In this document: piece after piece, positions 1 through 6,499 of the stretch
Numbering within the stretch: the first letter of the stretch is position 1
How the letters are laid out: every line of letters begins with the position of its first letter
From: Mycoplasmatota bacterium
GTDB taxonomy: Bacteria > Bacillota_I > Bacilli_A > Acholeplasmatales > Acholeplasmataceae
Assembly: GCA_024650045.1 (NCBI GenBank)
Contig: JANKMU010000001.1
Span: 1-64,000, forward strand
DNA: 64,000 nucleotides
Direction: 5' to 3'
The notes under the pieces: generated by a model
The model's input: only the letters and a program-made list of their open reading frames with translations
Told to the model about the DNA's origin: nothing
Database searches by the model: none
Made by a program: the position numbers and the translations under genes

Positions 1-133
1 TTAATGAATCCTTGAGTTCTATGAAACCTAACTTGTTGTTGTCAAAGACGAATTCTTTGACCTTCACACCTGCATCCGTAGCTATGAAGCAGTTGTGTTT
101 GAATTTAGAGATATCGATGCCGACATGGTACAT
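1..133 (-). CDS. IS110-family transposase, 5' fragment
   Basis: The reverse strand encodes 44 residues from ATG at 133 and runs off the left edge. The N-terminus reads MYHVGIDISKFKHNCFIATD, the DEDD (RuvC-like) start of IS110-family transposases, in which the D of GIDISK is the first catalytic acidic residue. A strong site (ggaggtggag) lies just upstream of the ATG and fixes the start. These recombinases are RNA-guided and carry a non-coding RNA beside the gene; a two-hairpin leader is present at 181-310. Only the start is visible, so whether the gene is intact cannot be judged. The family call is firm; subgroup is not. Confidence 0.85.
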   Translation of the reverse strand, partial: MYHVGIDISKFKHNCFIATDAGVKVKEFVFDNNKLGFIELKDSL

Positions 134-180
134 ATCTCCACCTCCTAAAAAAGTTTTTCGGTACTGATGGTTAGTCACGA

Positions 181-310
181 GTTTCCTGTTTACTATATTC
201 TTGTGATTAAGCGTCAAGCGCTAATAAACTTATTGATAGTAAAAAACAGGAACTGTGGTAGGAATCTCCTATAAGCGTCAAGCGCTAAAAACATGAAACA
301 AATCCACAGT
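181..310 (-). ncRNA. Putative bridge (seek) RNA of the IS110 element
   Basis: Two long hairpins lie head to tail directly upstream of the transposase start. In transposase orientation the first is closed by ACTGTGG/CCACAGT (252-258 with 304-310). The second is closed by about 13 base pairs, with a small bulge, between 184-196 and 236-252. Each large loop carries the same 17-base sequence (208-224 and 272-288). IS110-group elements are known to encode a bridge RNA in the 5' non-coding end, with separate target-binding and donor-binding loops. The two-loop layout and position fit; the RNA itself and its ends are inferred. Confidence 0.5.
208..288. repeat. 17-base direct repeat pair in the hairpin loops
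   Basis: The sequence taagcgtcaagcgctaa occurs exactly at 208-224 and 272-288, 64 bases apart, once inside each of the two hairpins of the putative bridge RNA. Each copy can itself fold as a small AGCG/CGCT hairpin. No third copy was noticed in the window. Confidence 0.8.
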
Positions 311-347
311 ACCTATTAAAAATTATAACAAATGAAAGAAAGGAAGC

Positions 348-385
348 TATATTCAGTATCAATCAAATGCTACATACTGAATATA
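348..385. other. 12-bp inverted repeat before the GH65 gene
   Basis: Perfect inverted repeat: tatattcagtat at 348-359 pairs with atactgaatata at 374-385, with a 14-base loop. It lies just before the ATG at 397, and its loop contains the alternative ATG at 367. It may be a 5' UTR hairpin or a regulator site. No T-tract follows, so it is not a standard terminator. Confidence 0.6.
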
Positions 386-396
386 CAAGAGATAAC

Positions 397-2643
397 ATGG
401 GAAAAATTGCACAAAGATATTTGGACGTAGATCCATGGAAAATCATTGAAACAGGATTTCATGAAAAACAAGCAGTTGTTTCAGAGTCTTTGTTTTCACT
501 ATCGAATGAATATATGGGAGTTCGTGGTTTCTTTGATGAAGGTTATCCAAAAGAATCTTTAATAGGTACTTATTTTAATGGTATATATGAGATTCCTAAG
601 AATATCCAAAGAAGTCATTATAAAGGCATTTCCGACAAGTCTCATTATATGGTAAATGCTGCAAATGCTTTTTATACAAGAATATTTATAGACGGCGAAA
701 TGTTTATCTTTAACCCTAATGAGATATCAAATTACAAAAGAGAACTTGATTTAAAAACTGGAGAACAAACTAGATCTTATCAAGTCAAAGATCTGTTTAT
801 AATTACATTTAAGCGTATTTTAAACATGAAAACCTATCAAATTAGTCATCAAGTTATTGAGATTGAACCTATCAATTATCATGGTCAGATGAGTATTCAG
901 ATAGGTATAGATTTTAGAACTAAGCATTGGGGAAAACCTGGGTTCTGGGATGTTAAATCCTGTGATAAACGTTATGCTTTAGGATATACCACAACTAACC
1001 AAAGTCTATTTAGTGGATACAAACTAGATGTTAATATAAGCCATCAATCTCAAATTGAATGTAAAGGAAGATTGAATATCGAAACCATTAATTTTGATTT
1101 AAACAAATCGGTATACATAGAAAAAACGATAGTTTCTTTAGTCGATAAAAAAGGTGAGAAATCATTAGATACATATCTAGATGAATCTTCTAACTTGTTA
1201 GACCAAGCTTCCTATAAAAATACTTATCAAGATAATCAATTGTTTTATCATAATTATTTTAATGAAAATGATATCGTTATTGAAGGCGATCCAGAAAATC
1301 AACAAGGCATTAGATATTGTTTGTTTCAACTTGTGAATACTTATTTAGGTGTTTCTGAAGATAATAATATTGGTGCAAAAGGATTAACGGGAGAAGCATA
1401 TTCTGGTCATGCCTTTTGGGATTCAGAAACTTATTGTGTTCCTGTATATTTATTTACAAACCCTAAAGCAGCAAAAAATTTATTAATGTTTAGATATAAT
1501 ACACTTAAACAAGCGAAGAAGCGGGCAATAGAACTTGATTGCAATGGAGCATGTTATCCGATTGCCACATTAAATGGTGATGAAGCTTGTGATTTATGGC
1601 AACACGCATCTCTGCAGTTTCAACCATCTAGTGCAGTTGCATATGCTATATGGCATTACGTTAAGAATACTAAAGATATTGAGTTTATGTTGAATTATGG
1701 ATTTGAAATGCTTGTGGAAATCGCAAGATTTTTCTCATCAAGAGGACAGTACAATCAAGATCAAACTAAATTTGGTTATTATGGTGTGATGGGACCTGAT
1801 GAGTTTCAGATGATGGTAAACCACAATGCATATACGAACCTATTAGCCAAAGAATCTATGTCATGGATGATTGATGTTTACGAAACATATCAACATCAAC
1901 CTGAAATTAAAAAGGTTGTTCAAAACTTAGGATTAACTTTAACTGAAATAGAAACCATGAAAAAACAATGCGAATTAATGTATATACCTTATGACAATAA
2001 AACGAAAATCTATGAGCAGCACGAAGGCTTTCATGATCTTCCTCATATCGATATCCATAGTATTCCAGTCACTGATTTTCCTTTGTATGCACATTGGAGT
2101 TATGATCGAATCTATCGAAACGATATGATTAAGCAACCCGATGTATTAATGTTTATGTTTTTATTCAATCAACGTTTTGACATTGAAACTAAAAAGGCTA
2201 ATTATGATTATTATGAACCAAAAACAATCCATGAATCATCACTATCTCCATCTATACACTCTATTTTCGCATCTGAATTAGGTTATAAAAAACAAGCACT
2301 AGAGTTTTTTGGATTCGCGACAAGAATGGATTTAGATGACTATAATAGAAACACTAAAGAAGGTCTTCATTTGACATCGATTGCTGCTGCTTGGGTAAAT
2401 ATTGTTTACGGGTTCGGTGGACTAAGAAGTGATGGTGAAATCCTAAAATTAGCACCATATTGTCCTGACACATGGAAATCATATCAGTTTAATTTCCATT
2501 ATTTTGATTCAAATATTCGCGTATATGTTAACCCTGAAAAAGTTACATTAACATTAGATCAAGATTTAAAAGAACCTTTGATGATATATGACAAGGTTTA
2601 CCATTTAAAAAAGGGAATGACAACCATACATGTGGGAAATTAA
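397..2643 (+). CDS. GH65 alpha-glucoside phosphorylase (first of tandem pair)
   Basis: Glycoside hydrolase family 65 protein of 748 residues. These enzymes cleave alpha-glucobioses with phosphate to give beta-glucose-1-phosphate in the cytoplasm. Family marks: N-terminal VDPWKIIETGF and SESLFSLSNEYMG, the FWDSE segment, and GPDEF with catalytic acid Glu469. The substrate-pocket segment reads LNGDEACDLWQHASLQFQPS, quite unlike the second copy, so the aglycone preference probably differs. ATG 397 is preferred because it gives the usual family N-terminus. ATG 367 would add ten residues and lies in the loop of an inverted repeat. It overlaps the next gene by 14 bases and stands in an operon with beta-phosphoglucomutase. 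Kojibiose, nigerose or maltose specificity cannot be told by eye. Confidence 0.9.
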   Translation: MGKIAQRYLDVDPWKIIETGFHEKQAVVSESLFSLSNEYMGVRGFFDEGYPKESLIGTYFNGIYEIPKNIQRSHYKGISDKSHYMVNAANAFYTRIFIDGEMFIFNPNEISNYKRELDLKTGEQTRSYQVKDLFIITFKRILNMKTYQISHQVIEIEPINYHGQMSIQIGIDFRTKHWGKPGFWDVKSCDKRYALGYTTTNQSLFSGYKLDVNISHQSQIECKGRLNIETINFDLNKSVYIEKTIVSLVDKKGEKSLDTYLDESSNLLDQASYKNTYQDNQLFYHNYFNENDIVIEGDPENQQGIRYCLFQLVNTYLGVSEDNNIGAKGLTGEAYSGHAFWDSETYCVPVYLFTNPKAAKNLLMFRYNTLKQAKKRAIELDCNGACYPIATLNGDEACDLWQHASLQFQPSSAVAYAIWHYVKNTKDIEFMLNYGFEMLVEIARFFSSRGQYNQDQTKFGYYGVMGPDEFQMMVNHNAYTNLLAKESMSWMIDVYETYQHQPEIKKVVQNLGLTLTEIETMKKQCELMYIPYDNKTKIYEQHEGFHDLPHIDIHSIPVTDFPLYAHWSYDRIYRNDMIKQPDVLMFMFLFNQRFDIETKKANYDYYEPKTIHESSLSPSIHSIFASELGYKKQALEFFGFATRMDLDDYNRNTKEGLHLTSIAAAWVNIVYGFGGLRSDGEILKLAPYCPDTWKSYQFNFHYFDSNIRVYVNPEKVTLTLDQDLKEPLMIYDKVYHLKKGMTTIHVGN

Positions 2644-4798
2644 GACATCTGAATTTAATCGAGATAAAATTATACACCACGGTAACCAGTTTTTAACTGG
2701 TCATTTAATGCTAGGTGTTAGAGGGACCTTAGATGAATATAGAAAAGAACAATTGGTTGCGATCAATTGTCCTTTGGTCTATGATCAAGTTGGTAATGGC
2801 TGGAGAGAACCAGTCAATGCATTTAATCCTCTATATACTAAGATTCAAGTTAATCAAGAATCTATTGATGTGCTTAACCATCATCCCATTAAACACGATC
2901 AAATACTTAATATAAAAGATTCAACAATGGCAAGACATAGTGTCTTTAAAAAAGAGGATATGTTAATGACTATTGATTCTAAAAGGTTTGTATCAGCAGT
3001 TGACCAAAGAGCAATTATAGGCGTATATCATGTATCCACAAATAAAGATGCAACAATTGAGATCTTAACAGGCATAGATACGCATATATGGGATATTAAT
3101 GGCCCTCATATCGAAATGATTAAAACAGGTGAAACACCTTATTTAAAAGCTTACGGTGTGACACATGAAAAAGGTTATAAGATTCAAACTTTAAAGAAGA
3201 TTGATTTAAAGTTTGAACCTAAGTCATTAGAAACGATAACGACTTCAGATGGTGTCTTTTATAACATCAGAATAGATGCAAAAGCAAATGAAACATATAC
3301 GTTCCACCAATATGCTGTTATTGGTGTAAATGAGGATGATAATCAATTGCAAGCAACACTTGAAAAAATTGTAAGTGATGGTCATGATCATAGACTCATT
3401 AAACATCAACAAGCTTGGGATAAAAGATGGATGGATGCAGATGTCTTGATAGAAGGTGACAATGAAGCACAACTTGCTTTAAGATATTCTATATATCATT
3501 TGCTGCTTTTATCACCTAGTATCTACAAACAAGCATCAATTCCAGCAAGGGGTATTTCAGGCCAAACATATAAAGGTGCAATCTTTTGGGATACTGAAAT
3601 CTTTATGTTGCCTTTTTACTTAAATACTGATATCAAGAGTGCTAAACATATTATTGATTATCGTATTCATGGTCTAAAAGGAGCAAAAGAAAAAGCCAAA
3701 TCATATGGATTCAAAGGGGCATTTTATGCATGGGAATCTCAAGAACATGGGTATGATGCATGCACAGATTATAATGTTACAGATGTATTCACTAAAAGAC
3801 GAATTAGAACTTATTTTAAAGACAAACAAGTTCATATATCAGCTGATATCGTTTATGCGATTCAAACTTATATTCACCGTACAAATGACTATTCGATTTT
3901 AAAAGAAGGAGCACTTGAGGTAATCCTTGAAGTCGCAAGATTTTATTTAGATTACGGAAAATATTCTATTCTAGATGACCGTTTTGAAGTATGGGATGTT
4001 ATGGGTCCGGATGAATATCATGAGCGTGTCCATAATAATGCTTTTACCAATCGAATGGTTAAGATGGTATTTGATACTGTGGTTCATTACGAAGCATATT
4101 TTAAAAAAGAAAATGACAAATACTTTGATGAACTAGTTCATGGAATCGGCTTTAAAAAGCCACTTCATGAAATCCATCAAATCAAAGATAAAGTATATCA
4201 AAAAGAAATATCGAAGCATCAATTGATAGAACAATTCGATGGTTATTTTAACTTTCGAGATGTGTCATTAAAAGATATATTTAAAAATAAGTTACATGAA
4301 AATGAATATTTAGGTGGACATGGTTTAGCTGGGGATACCCAAATCATTAAACAGGCTGATGTCATCACGATGCTTTACTTGTTTAGAGATGATTTTGACT
4401 TAAATGTTATGGAAGCTAACTGGAAGTATTATGAGCCTAGAACAGAACACGGCTCATCATTATCTGCAAGTATGTATGCACTTGTTGCATGTATGATTGG
4501 CAATCCCGAATATGCATATCCACTCTTTATGAAATCAGCAACTGTTGATTTAACTGGTATATCTAAAACATATGCTGGAGACATATATATTGGCGGTACA
4601 CACCCCGCAGCATCAGGTGGTGCATACATGACTGCTATATACGGATTTTCAGGTTTGTCTTTAACAGATAAAATAAGTGTAAATCCTCAATTACCTAAAT
4701 CAATACAATCTTTAACTTATAAAATTATCCATCAAGGAAAGAAATATCAAATTTATGTCTCAAACAAACTTTCAGAAATCAAGGAGATACAGTTATGA
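2630..4798 (+). CDS. GH65 alpha-glucoside phosphorylase (second of tandem pair)
   Basis: 722-residue GH65 protein. It has FWDTEIFMLPFY, GPDEYHERVHNNAFTN with catalytic Glu462, and the phosphate-binding HGSSLSAS near residue 605. The segment AWESQEHGYDACTDYN followed by HISADIVYAI resembles annotated kojibiose/nigerose-type phosphorylases, but specificity is not assigned. It overlaps the upstream GH65 by 14 bases and the downstream pgmB by 4 (ATGA), so the three are translationally coupled. Two divergent phosphorylases feeding one mutase imply use of at least two alpha-glucosides, with ATP saved at the first activation step. Confidence 0.9.
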   Translation: MWEIKTSEFNRDKIIHHGNQFLTGHLMLGVRGTLDEYRKEQLVAINCPLVYDQVGNGWREPVNAFNPLYTKIQVNQESIDVLNHHPIKHDQILNIKDSTMARHSVFKKEDMLMTIDSKRFVSAVDQRAIIGVYHVSTNKDATIEILTGIDTHIWDINGPHIEMIKTGETPYLKAYGVTHEKGYKIQTLKKIDLKFEPKSLETITTSDGVFYNIRIDAKANETYTFHQYAVIGVNEDDNQLQATLEKIVSDGHDHRLIKHQQAWDKRWMDADVLIEGDNEAQLALRYSIYHLLLLSPSIYKQASIPARGISGQTYKGAIFWDTEIFMLPFYLNTDIKSAKHIIDYRIHGLKGAKEKAKSYGFKGAFYAWESQEHGYDACTDYNVTDVFTKRRIRTYFKDKQVHISADIVYAIQTYIHRTNDYSILKEGALEVILEVARFYLDYGKYSILDDRFEVWDVMGPDEYHERVHNNAFTNRMVKMVFDTVVHYEAYFKKENDKYFDELVHGIGFKKPLHEIHQIKDKVYQKEISKHQLIEQFDGYFNFRDVSLKDIFKNKLHENEYLGGHGLAGDTQIIKQADVITMLYLFRDDFDLNVMEANWKYYEPRTEHGSSLSASMYALVACMIGNPEYAYPLFMKSATVDLTGISKTYAGDIYIGGTHPAASGGAYMTAIYGFSGLSLTDKISVNPQLPKSIQSLTYKIIHQGKKYQIYVSNKLSEIKEIQL

Positions 4799-5427
4799 TT
4801 AAAGCAGTTATATTTGATTTAGATGGCGTTATTGTTAGCACTGATCAACTTCATTATGAAGCATGGAAACATATAGCGGATCAAGAAGGTATTCATTTTG
4901 ATGAAAAAATCAATCATCGTCTTCGAGGTGTATCGCGCATGGACTCTTTAAACATTATTTTAGAGAATGCGAATAAGAAATATAATGATTCAGAAAAAAA
5001 ATCATTAGCAAAAACAAAAAATGATTACTATGTAGAGTTACTTAAACAACTTTCGCCCAAAGATATGTTACCGCATGTTTATGATGTACTCTTAAAGCTC
5101 AAAGAAAAAGGTATAAAAATAGCAATTGGTTCGTCATCTAGAAATGCAAAAACGATATTAAAATACCTTAACATTACCAATTTATTCGAAGCGATTGCTG
5201 ATGGAACAGATATTGAAAACTCTAAACCCGCACCAGATGTATTTTTAAAAGCTGCAGCAAAACTAGGGGTTCCATACGCATCCTGTGCTGTCATTGAAGA
5301 TGCAACAGTTGGTATTGAAGCAGCTAAAAAAGCGGGTATGCTAGCAATTGCTGTATTTGATGCAAAAAAGTCAAAGCAAGCTGATTATAAACTCGATGAT
5401 ATAAGAGATTTGTTATCAATTGTTTAG
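4795..5427 (+). CDS. pgmB: Beta-phosphoglucomutase
   Basis: HAD-superfamily protein of 210 residues, the usual length. It converts beta-glucose-1-phosphate to glucose-6-phosphate, the step that follows GH65 phosphorolysis. The motif I sequence VIFDLDGVI carries nucleophile Asp8 and acid/base Asp10; motif II is IAIGSSSRN; motif III/IV is ENSKPAPD and AVIEDATVGIEAA. A helical cap lies between motifs I and II. It overlaps the second GH65 gene by 4 bases, which settles the pathway role. Confidence 0.93.
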   Translation: MIKAVIFDLDGVIVSTDQLHYEAWKHIADQEGIHFDEKINHRLRGVSRMDSLNIILENANKKYNDSEKKSLAKTKNDYYVELLKQLSPKDMLPHVYDVLLKLKEKGIKIAIGSSSRNAKTILKYLNITNLFEAIADGTDIENSKPAPDVFLKAAAKLGVPYASCAVIEDATVGIEAAKKAGMLAIAVFDAKKSKQADYKLDDIRDLLSIV

Positions 5428-5436
5428 GTGTATAAT
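5409..5436 (+). promoter_or_regulatory. Possible promoter of the LacI regulator gene
   Basis: A TATAAT box at 5431-5436 follows the pgmB stop and lies about 30 bases before the regulator start. The upstream element is weak (ttgtta at 5410-5415, short spacer), so only the -10 box is supported. Confidence 0.35.
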
Positions 5437-5467
5437 ATAAGTAGATGAAGTATAAAAAAGGAGAAAT

Positions 5468-6499
5468 ATGACAAAAAAGACGAATATTGCTGAAATTGCA
5501 AGATTAGCTGGAGTTTCAACAGCAACTGTTTCATATGTCATTAATGATGTAGATAAGGTTTCTGAAAAAACGAAAGAGCGTGTAAGAAAGATCATGGCTG
5601 AATTGGATTATATTCCAAGTATTAACGCTAGATCTCTATCAAATGGACGAACAAAACTGATAGGTGTAACATTGCCACTCATCGCTCCATCGGATACAAC
5701 AGGAACGCTTTTAGAAACCAATCCTTTTTTTGCTGAGTATTTAGGTGAAATACATAAAGTTATTGCATCATATGGATATGATATCTTATTATCAGGTATT
5801 CAAGTAAAAGGTAAATATAAGAACTGGATTAAAAGTCGTGGTTTAGACGGCATTATTTTGTTAGGTTCTTATCCACCTGATATTTACGAAGAAGTAAAAG
5901 CTTTGAATATTCCAACAGTATTAACAGATATTTATGAGACCTATGCAAATGATTTTCATTCTGTGAATACAGATGATGCTGAAGGATCATATTTAGCAAC
6001 AAAACATTTAATTAGTTTAGGACACAAAAAAATTGGATTTGTTGGTGGATCAATTAAAGAATCACCTATTCATAATAATAGATATTTAGGTTACGGGAAA
6101 GCCATGCTTGAAGGACATTTGAAAATCAATAACGATTGTGTGTTTGAGACGTTGACAACTTTTGAAGGCGGTGTTAATTTTGCACAGCGTTTAATGAGAG
6201 ATAAAGTCGATTTAACAGCTTTAGTTGTCGATGCTGACATTGTAGCATTAGGCGTTATGAAAGCTTGTCAGGATGCAGGTAAGAAGATACCTGACGAACT
6301 ATCTATTGTAGGTTTCGATGATATTCAAGCAGCTTCATTTACTTCTCCGGGTCTAACGACCATTAGACAGTTTATCTCTAAAAAAGGAGAGATTGCTGCT
6401 AATTTGATAATGAAGGATATATTAGCAAGTACAAGAACTACCGATTCAAAAATGGTGAAATCAAAATTAATTATTAGAGGCAGTACAAAAAAAATATAA
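5468..6499 (+). CDS. LacI/GalR-family transcription regulator
   Basis: 343-residue DNA-binding regulator. The N-terminal helix-turn-helix is IAEIARLAGVSTATVSYVIN, followed by the hinge helix region NARSLSNGRTKLIGV. The rest is a periplasmic-binding-protein-like effector domain, with VGFDDIQAASFTSPGLTTI near the C-terminus as in the family. A GGAG site precedes ATG. As the last gene after two GH65 genes and pgmB, it most likely controls that operon in response to an alpha-glucoside or its product. The operator was not identified with confidence. A terminator follows directly. Confidence 0.93.
   Translation: MTKKTNIAEIARLAGVSTATVSYVINDVDKVSEKTKERVRKIMAELDYIPSINARSLSNGRTKLIGVTLPLIAPSDTTGTLLETNPFFAEYLGEIHKVIASYGYDILLSGIQVKGKYKNWIKSRGLDGIILLGSYPPDIYEEVKALNIPTVLTDIYETYANDFHSVNTDDAEGSYLATKHLISLGHKKIGFVGGSIKESPIHNNRYLGYGKAMLEGHLKINNDCVFETLTTFEGGVNFAQRLMRDKVDLTALVVDADIVALGVMKACQDAGKKIPDELSIVGFDDIQAASFTSPGLTTIRQFISKKGEIAANLIMKDILASTRTTDSKMVKSKLIIRGSTKKI

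What the first reader, a model, noticed from the sequence alone, without database searches (positions are those of the whole stretch)
1..310. IS110 element start with a two-hairpin bridge-RNA-like leader sharing a loop sequence
The leader upstream of the transposase folds into two long hairpins, as in IS621-type bridge RNAs, and both loops contain the same 17 bases. Normally the two loops differ because they pair with target and donor. Near-identical loop cores could mean that target and donor share sequence, which would predict insertion into copies of a site like the element end.
Basis: partly seen in the sequence, partly recalled or inferred. Interest (0 to 1): 0.6.

Follow-up and report, generated by a model that had tools for sequence, protein, structure and literature searches.

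The report
RNA-guided mobile element hitting gene starts
This is one end of an RNA-guided bacterial jumping gene (IS110 family); the base run shared by its two RNA loops is a structural cap rather than a guide, and its real target guide spells a ribosome-binding site, so copies land just in front of genes, as was known for the mycobacterial relative IS900.

Summary
On the minus strand, upstream of an IS110 transposase gene cut by the contig end, lies a two-loop leader, and both loops contain TTAGCGCTTGACGCTTA. The leader is a bridge RNA: 52 relatives show strong compensatory changes, and the guides match the element ends and target sites. The shared stretch is a small hairpin (AGCG-CUUGA-CGCU) capping both the target-binding and the donor-binding loop. 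The guides flank it and differ, and target and donor are alike only in the CT core. Exact identity of the two caps occurs in 1 of 59 distinct elements (0.27 expected by chance).

The element has at least five copies here. All five right flanks begin CTCCT and all five left flanks carry a start codon, so copies split the Shine-Dalgarno sequence (AGGAG) of genes. An empty ortholog site confirms this for the window copy, which sits in front of a glycoside hydrolase 65 (GH65) gene. Across 39 guides and 65 insertions, the right target guide fits its own target far better than other guides do (0 of 5000 permutations). Targeting of translation-initiation sites is known for IS900, so this is a new member of a known kind with a bridge-RNA explanation added.

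The parts
1..389 (-). left-end part of an IS110-family insertion sequence; the rest is cut off by the contig end
   Evidence: other copies share sequence up to 388/389 and diverge beyond it; about 1.5 kb in the 94% identical copy of genome G072
2..133 (-). N-terminal 44 codons of the DEDD transposase/recombinase
   Evidence: 95% identical to a full 388-aa protein (L095) that matches PF01548 and PF02371
160..313 (-). bridge RNA core closed by an outer stem (309-313 with 160-164)
   Evidence: outer stem has changes on both sides in all 5 pairs over 52 relatives
252..310 (-). target-binding loop (TBL), stem 304-310 with 252-258
   Evidence: alignment A2 and named-structure count
287..295 (-). left target guide CATGTTTTT; register includes the core, as in IS621
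   Evidence: own-guide pairing 4.50 of 9 vs 3.93+-0.16 permuted, 0/3000, only in this register; the match of the window copy itself is weak
274..286 (-). TBL cap hairpin AGCG-CTTGA-CGCT (first copy of the shared 17 bases)
   Evidence: 4 of 4 stem pairs change on both sides among relatives
266..273 (-). right target guide TATAGGAG, complementary to core+target CTCCTATA, i.e. a Shine-Dalgarno sequence
   Evidence: all five G000 copies have CTCCT at the right junction; family test 6.15 of 7 vs 4.86+-0.13, 0/5000
183..251 (-). donor-binding loop (DBL), stem 235-251 with 183-196
   Evidence: fold and double changes in the aligned stem
224..230 (-). left donor guide AGTTTAT, identical to the element's right end ATAGTTTAT|CT
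   Evidence: right ends on contigs C41, C15 (both ends), C9, C21; own vs foreign guides 6.46 vs 5.15 of 7
210..222 (-). DBL cap hairpin AGCG-CTTGA-CGCT (second copy of the shared 17 bases)
200..205 (-). right donor guide CACAAG, pairs with core and left end CTTGT
   Evidence: RDG-LE pairing own 5.53 vs 4.68+-0.18, 0/2000
349..384 (-). inverted repeat ATATTCAGTAT...ATACTGAATAT at the left end; position of the 5' stem-loop
   Evidence: read from sequence
380..385 (-). -10 box TATATT; joins with TTGACT of the right end at 17-bp spacing in the circle junction
   Evidence: junction rebuilt from L095 and G000 right ends
388..389 (-). core dinucleotide CT at the left end
   Evidence: divergence point of copies
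397..2643 (+). target gene, glycoside hydrolase family 65; its Shine-Dalgarno sequence is split by the insertion, 7 nt before the ATG
   Evidence: empty ortholog ...GACAAGG-AG-ATATAAC-ATGGGAAAAATT in G005; other half ...GACAAGGAG at the C15 end

Best explanation
An IS110-family element whose left end makes a bridge RNA. Each of the two loops is built as stem, left guide, cap hairpin, right guide. The shared 17 bases are the two cap hairpins, which presumably are recognised by the recombinase or serve as rigid loop ends. The donor loop recognises the joined element ends (AGTTTAT|CT|TGTA). The target loop recognises a translation start: the right guide TATAGGAG pairs with CT|CCT of the target, i.e. 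the Shine-Dalgarno sequence AGGAG. Recombination at CT inserts the element inside the Shine-Dalgarno sequence with its left end facing the start codon. Shown here: RNA structure, element ends, guide-target and guide-donor matching, an empty site, and proximity to start codons. Inferred: transcription of the RNA, cap recognition by protein, and the reaction steps.
For: Covariation over five helices in 52 elements, 0/500 shuffles, and RNAalifold found the same helices unaided. RTG vs own target 6.15/7 against 4.86+-0.13, 0/5000, and significant within both the CT-core and CA-core classes. The guides follow the register of the site: GGAGATG with CATCTCC, GGAGTTG with CAACTCC, AGGAGTG with CACTCCT, GAAGGTG with CACCTTC. 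LTG 0/3000 in the IS621 register and null one base off. RDG-LE 0/2000. 60 of 72 insertions have a start codon 4-13 nt from the core opening a frame of at least 30 codons, mostly at 5-7 nt; in the window this holds for 11% of positions and 35% of AGGAG sites. Five of five G000 right flanks are CTCCT, and an ortholog gives the empty site. The junction promoter TTGACT-17-TATATT resembles that described for IS621 (PMC11208158).
Against: No RNA or activity data. The left guide of the window element fits its own five targets poorly, and in CA-core elements the left guide is not significant (495/3000). Selection against insertions inside genes could add to the start-codon enrichment. LDG matching was used to locate right ends, so that test is partly circular outside the multi-copy families. 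The G000 copies are known only as half elements at contig ends.
Confidence: 0.93

Rival explanations
1. One reading: the shared 17 bases are guides, so target and donor share sequence and insertions go into sites like the element end.
For: Exact 17-base repeat in both loops.
Against: The repeat is a covarying hairpin, target and donor share nothing beyond the core, and real targets are CTCCT sites before start codons.
Confidence: 0.02
2. The exact identity of the two caps in this element is a recent, selected event (gene conversion or co-adaptation) that gives the target loop the same protein contact as the donor loop.
For: Both stems and loops are identical in the window element; the donor cap of IS621 contacts RuvC, the shorter target cap does not (PMC11208158).
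Against: Only 1 of 59 distinct elements, 0.27 expected from independent caps; no coupling of loop sequences within elements (10 observed, 8.5 expected). The 94% identical L095 has a 3-pair cap stem.
Confidence: 0.1
3. Insertions are not aimed at ribosome-binding sites; they are survivors after loss of insertions that disrupt genes.
For: Sites just outside coding sequence are tolerated in general (general knowledge).
Against: The guide itself spells the Shine-Dalgarno sequence and varies together with the site; random or AGGAG sites have far fewer start codons.
Confidence: 0.05
4. The leader is only a transposase 5' UTR or attenuator with two hairpins.
For: It sits directly upstream of the transposase; single-sequence fold is weak.
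Against: Four guide segments match element ends and targets.
Confidence: 0.02

Closest known systems
IS621 bridge RNA (IS110 family; PMC11208160, PMC11208158)
   Same: bridge RNA in the left end; two loops each of stem, left guide, stem-loop, right guide; core included in pairing; promoter rebuilt at the right-left end junction; CT core
   Different: IS621 targets REP elements; its target cap is shorter than its donor cap. Here both caps carry the same C..GA type loop, an outer stem encloses both loops, and the target guide spells a Shine-Dalgarno sequence; some relatives use a CA core
IS900 of Mycobacterium avium subsp. paratuberculosis (IS110 family; PMC8141618, citing Doran et al. 1997)
   Same: target motif CATGNNNNNNTCTCCTT, i.e. 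start codon plus Shine-Dalgarno sequence on the reverse strand, the same target layout as here
   Different: IS900 was reported to carry the antisense gene hed; no long antisense frame starts at the right end here (maximum 38 codons in 57 elements). I found no paper in the library that links IS900 targeting to a bridge RNA; IS900 itself was not examined
IS1111/IS110 seekRNA systems (PMC11187229)
   Same: RNA-guided DEDD transposases with programmable target choice
   Different: IS1111 members have subterminal inverted repeats and their non-coding RNA region downstream of tnp; here it is upstream, as in IS110

Membership tests
IS110-family element | DEDD transposase with PF01548 and PF02371 domains | tested here: met
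   full-length relative L095 matches both; window fragment 95% identical over 44 aa; C-terminal half on contig C41
IS110-family element | long non-coding left end upstream of the transposase | tested here: met
   about 255 nt between left end (389) and start codon (133)
Bridge RNA of IS621 type | two stem-loops with internal loops holding left and right guides around a stem-loop | tested here: met
   covariation
Bridge RNA of IS621 type | guides complementary to target and donor, core included | tested here: met
   left target guide weak for the window element itself
Bridge RNA of IS621 type | sigma70-like promoter rebuilt at the right-left end junction | tested here: met
   TTGACT-17-TATATT by sequence; activity not tested
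Bridge RNA of IS621 type | RNA transcribed and bound by the recombinase | not testable with these tools
   needs RNA sequencing or pulldown
IS900-like targeting of translation-initiation sites | insertion between Shine-Dalgarno sequence and start codon, fixed orientation | tested here: met
   five right and five left flanks in G000, empty site in G005, 60 of 72 insertions in the clade
IS900-like targeting of translation-initiation sites | antisense hed gene using the target's start signals | tested here: not met
   no antisense frame above 38 codons starting within 60 nt of the right end

The most novel reading that the evidence does not exclude
In this element the target-binding loop has acquired the donor-loop cap, so both loops can make the cap-RuvC contact that in IS621 is specific to the donor loop. 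It could then recombine target with target, i.e. rearrange the host genome between ribosome-binding sites.
Probability: 0.07. Interest if true: 0.65.

Novelty: new member of a known kind. Interest (0 to 1): 0.42.

Why it matters
The 1997 observation that IS900 targets translation-initiation signals has no stated mechanism in the papers I could search. Here a clade in Mollicutes, Bacilli and Clostridia shows one directly: the right target guide is a Shine-Dalgarno sequence, and it shifts register together with the site. Shine-Dalgarno sequences are widespread, numerous and outside coding sequence, which would let an element move between hosts with little damage. It also offers natural guide sets that address gene starts in general, useful for testing bridge RNA specificity.

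Tried and rejected
Rfam scan: no match at gathering score. Single-sequence fold: not decisive. Reading the shared 17 bases as a guide: rejected. Assigning the conserved CCT at the right junction to the element: rejected because it varies with the right guide (CACCTT, CATCTCC, CAACTCC) in other elements while the left donor guide ends before the core. Searching for a hed-like antisense gene: none. One translation of the C41 half was taken in the wrong frame and is not used; one Pfam call and one protein comparison failed on coordinates.

Full report
What is there. Window base 1 is base 1 of contig G000:C11. The minus strand carries the start of an IS110 transposase gene at 133 and its leader. 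A 94% identical complete element exists in genome G072 (L095): 388 aa, with PF01548 and PF02371. A 20-nt direct repeat at 95% identity with an exact 17-mer in common is confirmed at 208-227 and 272-291.

Ends and copies. The left-end sequence recurs at the starts of contigs C32, C27, C9 and C1, and the right end at C41, both ends of C15, C9 and C21. The element is therefore present in at least five copies on which the assembly broke. The ends are CT|TGTATATTC on the left and ...TTGACTTCGTATAGTTTAT|CT on the right. All five right flanks start CCT after the CT core; all five left flanks contain CAT, the start codon on the other strand, starting 8-12 nt before the core.

Empty site. The ortholog in G005 (86% identical) reads ...CTTAGCAGACAAGG-AG-ATATAAC-ATGGGAAAAATT. 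In G000 the two halves are ...CTTAACAGACAAGGAG (end of contig C15) and AG-AGATAAC-ATGGGAAAAATT (window 388 onward). The element thus sits inside the Shine-Dalgarno sequence AAGGAG of a GH65 gene, 7 nt before its ATG at 397.

Bridge RNA. Fifty-two non-redundant leaders from Mollicutes, Bacilli and Clostridia were aligned without structural guidance. RNAalifold finds an outer stem, the stem of the target loop, a hairpin inside each loop and part of the donor-loop stem. The named structure has 97.5% of cells paired, 14 of 20 pairs with double changes, 156 double-changed cells against 41+-8 in shuffles (0/500), and slid controls below 47% paired. Relatedness inflates such shuffle tests, but the slid controls keep relatedness and are far lower.

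What the 17 bases are. They are the cap hairpins AGCG-CUUGA-CGCU at 274-286 (target loop) and 210-222 (donor loop), plus a few matching flanking bases. In relatives the target cap is ACAG/CUGU, AUAG/CUAU, GUAG/CUAC, AACG/CGUU or ACCA/UGGU, and the donor cap AGCG/CGCU, AACG/CGUU, AACA/UGUU or ACCG/CGGU. In most elements the loop of both is of the form C..GA. The caps coincide exactly only in the window element (1 of 59; 0.27 expected from independent caps). In IS621 the corresponding stem-loops exist; the donor one contacts RuvC and the shorter target one does not (PMC11208158).

Guides. The right target guide against its own target (core plus five bases): 6.15 of 7 pairs, permuted 4.86+-0.13, 0/5000; also 0/5000 within CT-core and within CA-core elements. 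Right ends were located through the left donor guide, not the right target guide, so this test is independent of how the site was found. The left target guide in the IS621 register (nine bases including the core, adjacent to the cap): 4.50 against 3.93+-0.16, 0/3000, with three perfect 9 of 9 cases (L189, L204, L154); one base off gives nothing. It is clear in CT-core elements (0/3000) and not significant in CA-core ones. Donor side: the right donor guide against the left end, 0/2000; left donor guides match their own right ends better than foreign ones (6.46 against 5.15 of 7), partly circular as noted. Target and donor are alike only in the core.

Target class. Most right target guides contain a Shine-Dalgarno core (GGAG, GAGG, AAGG) in a register set by the core dinucleotide. 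Sixty of 72 insertions have a start codon 4-13 nt from the core with a frame of at least 30 codons, peaking at 5-7 nt. In the 64 kb window the rate is 11% for positions in general and 35% for AGGAG sites.

Comparison. IS900 has the target motif CATGNNNNNNTCTCCTT (PMC8141618) and was described in 1997 as targeting translation-initiation signals (title cited there). The target class is therefore known. I found no paper in the library that joins this to a bridge RNA, but subscription papers, preprints and paper supplements were not searched. Unlike IS900, these elements have no long antisense frame starting at the right end.

Limits. No transcript or activity data; half copies at contig ends; background rates from one window; sequences are related, so permutations over guides are not fully independent.

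Noticed in passing
L002 1500-1915 (G000:C1:61268 to the contig end at 61682): A second, distinct IS110 element (54% identical N-terminus) with CA core and right target guide GAGGTG sits at the end of contig C1; its other half was not found in the assembly.
   Followed up: partly
window 397-6499: The insertion lies in front of the first gene of a likely disaccharide-use cluster: two GH65 proteins, a HAD hydrolase and a LacI-type regulator. The insertion may alter its translation.
   Followed up: partly
L103-L106, L123-L125, L171-L183: Related elements use a CA rather than CT core dinucleotide, with the guides changed accordingly (TG in the right guides).
   Followed up: yes
window 324-350, minus strand, and the same place in relatives: A conserved TATAAT-like box and a CCTTTCTTTC tract lie just before the target loop, besides the junction promoter; they may serve a second promoter in the integrated element.
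   Followed up: no
L166 148-317: This more distant element has a right target guide side (TTTTTGTCAATTTC) that does not look like a Shine-Dalgarno sequence; the target class of that branch is not resolved.
   Followed up: no
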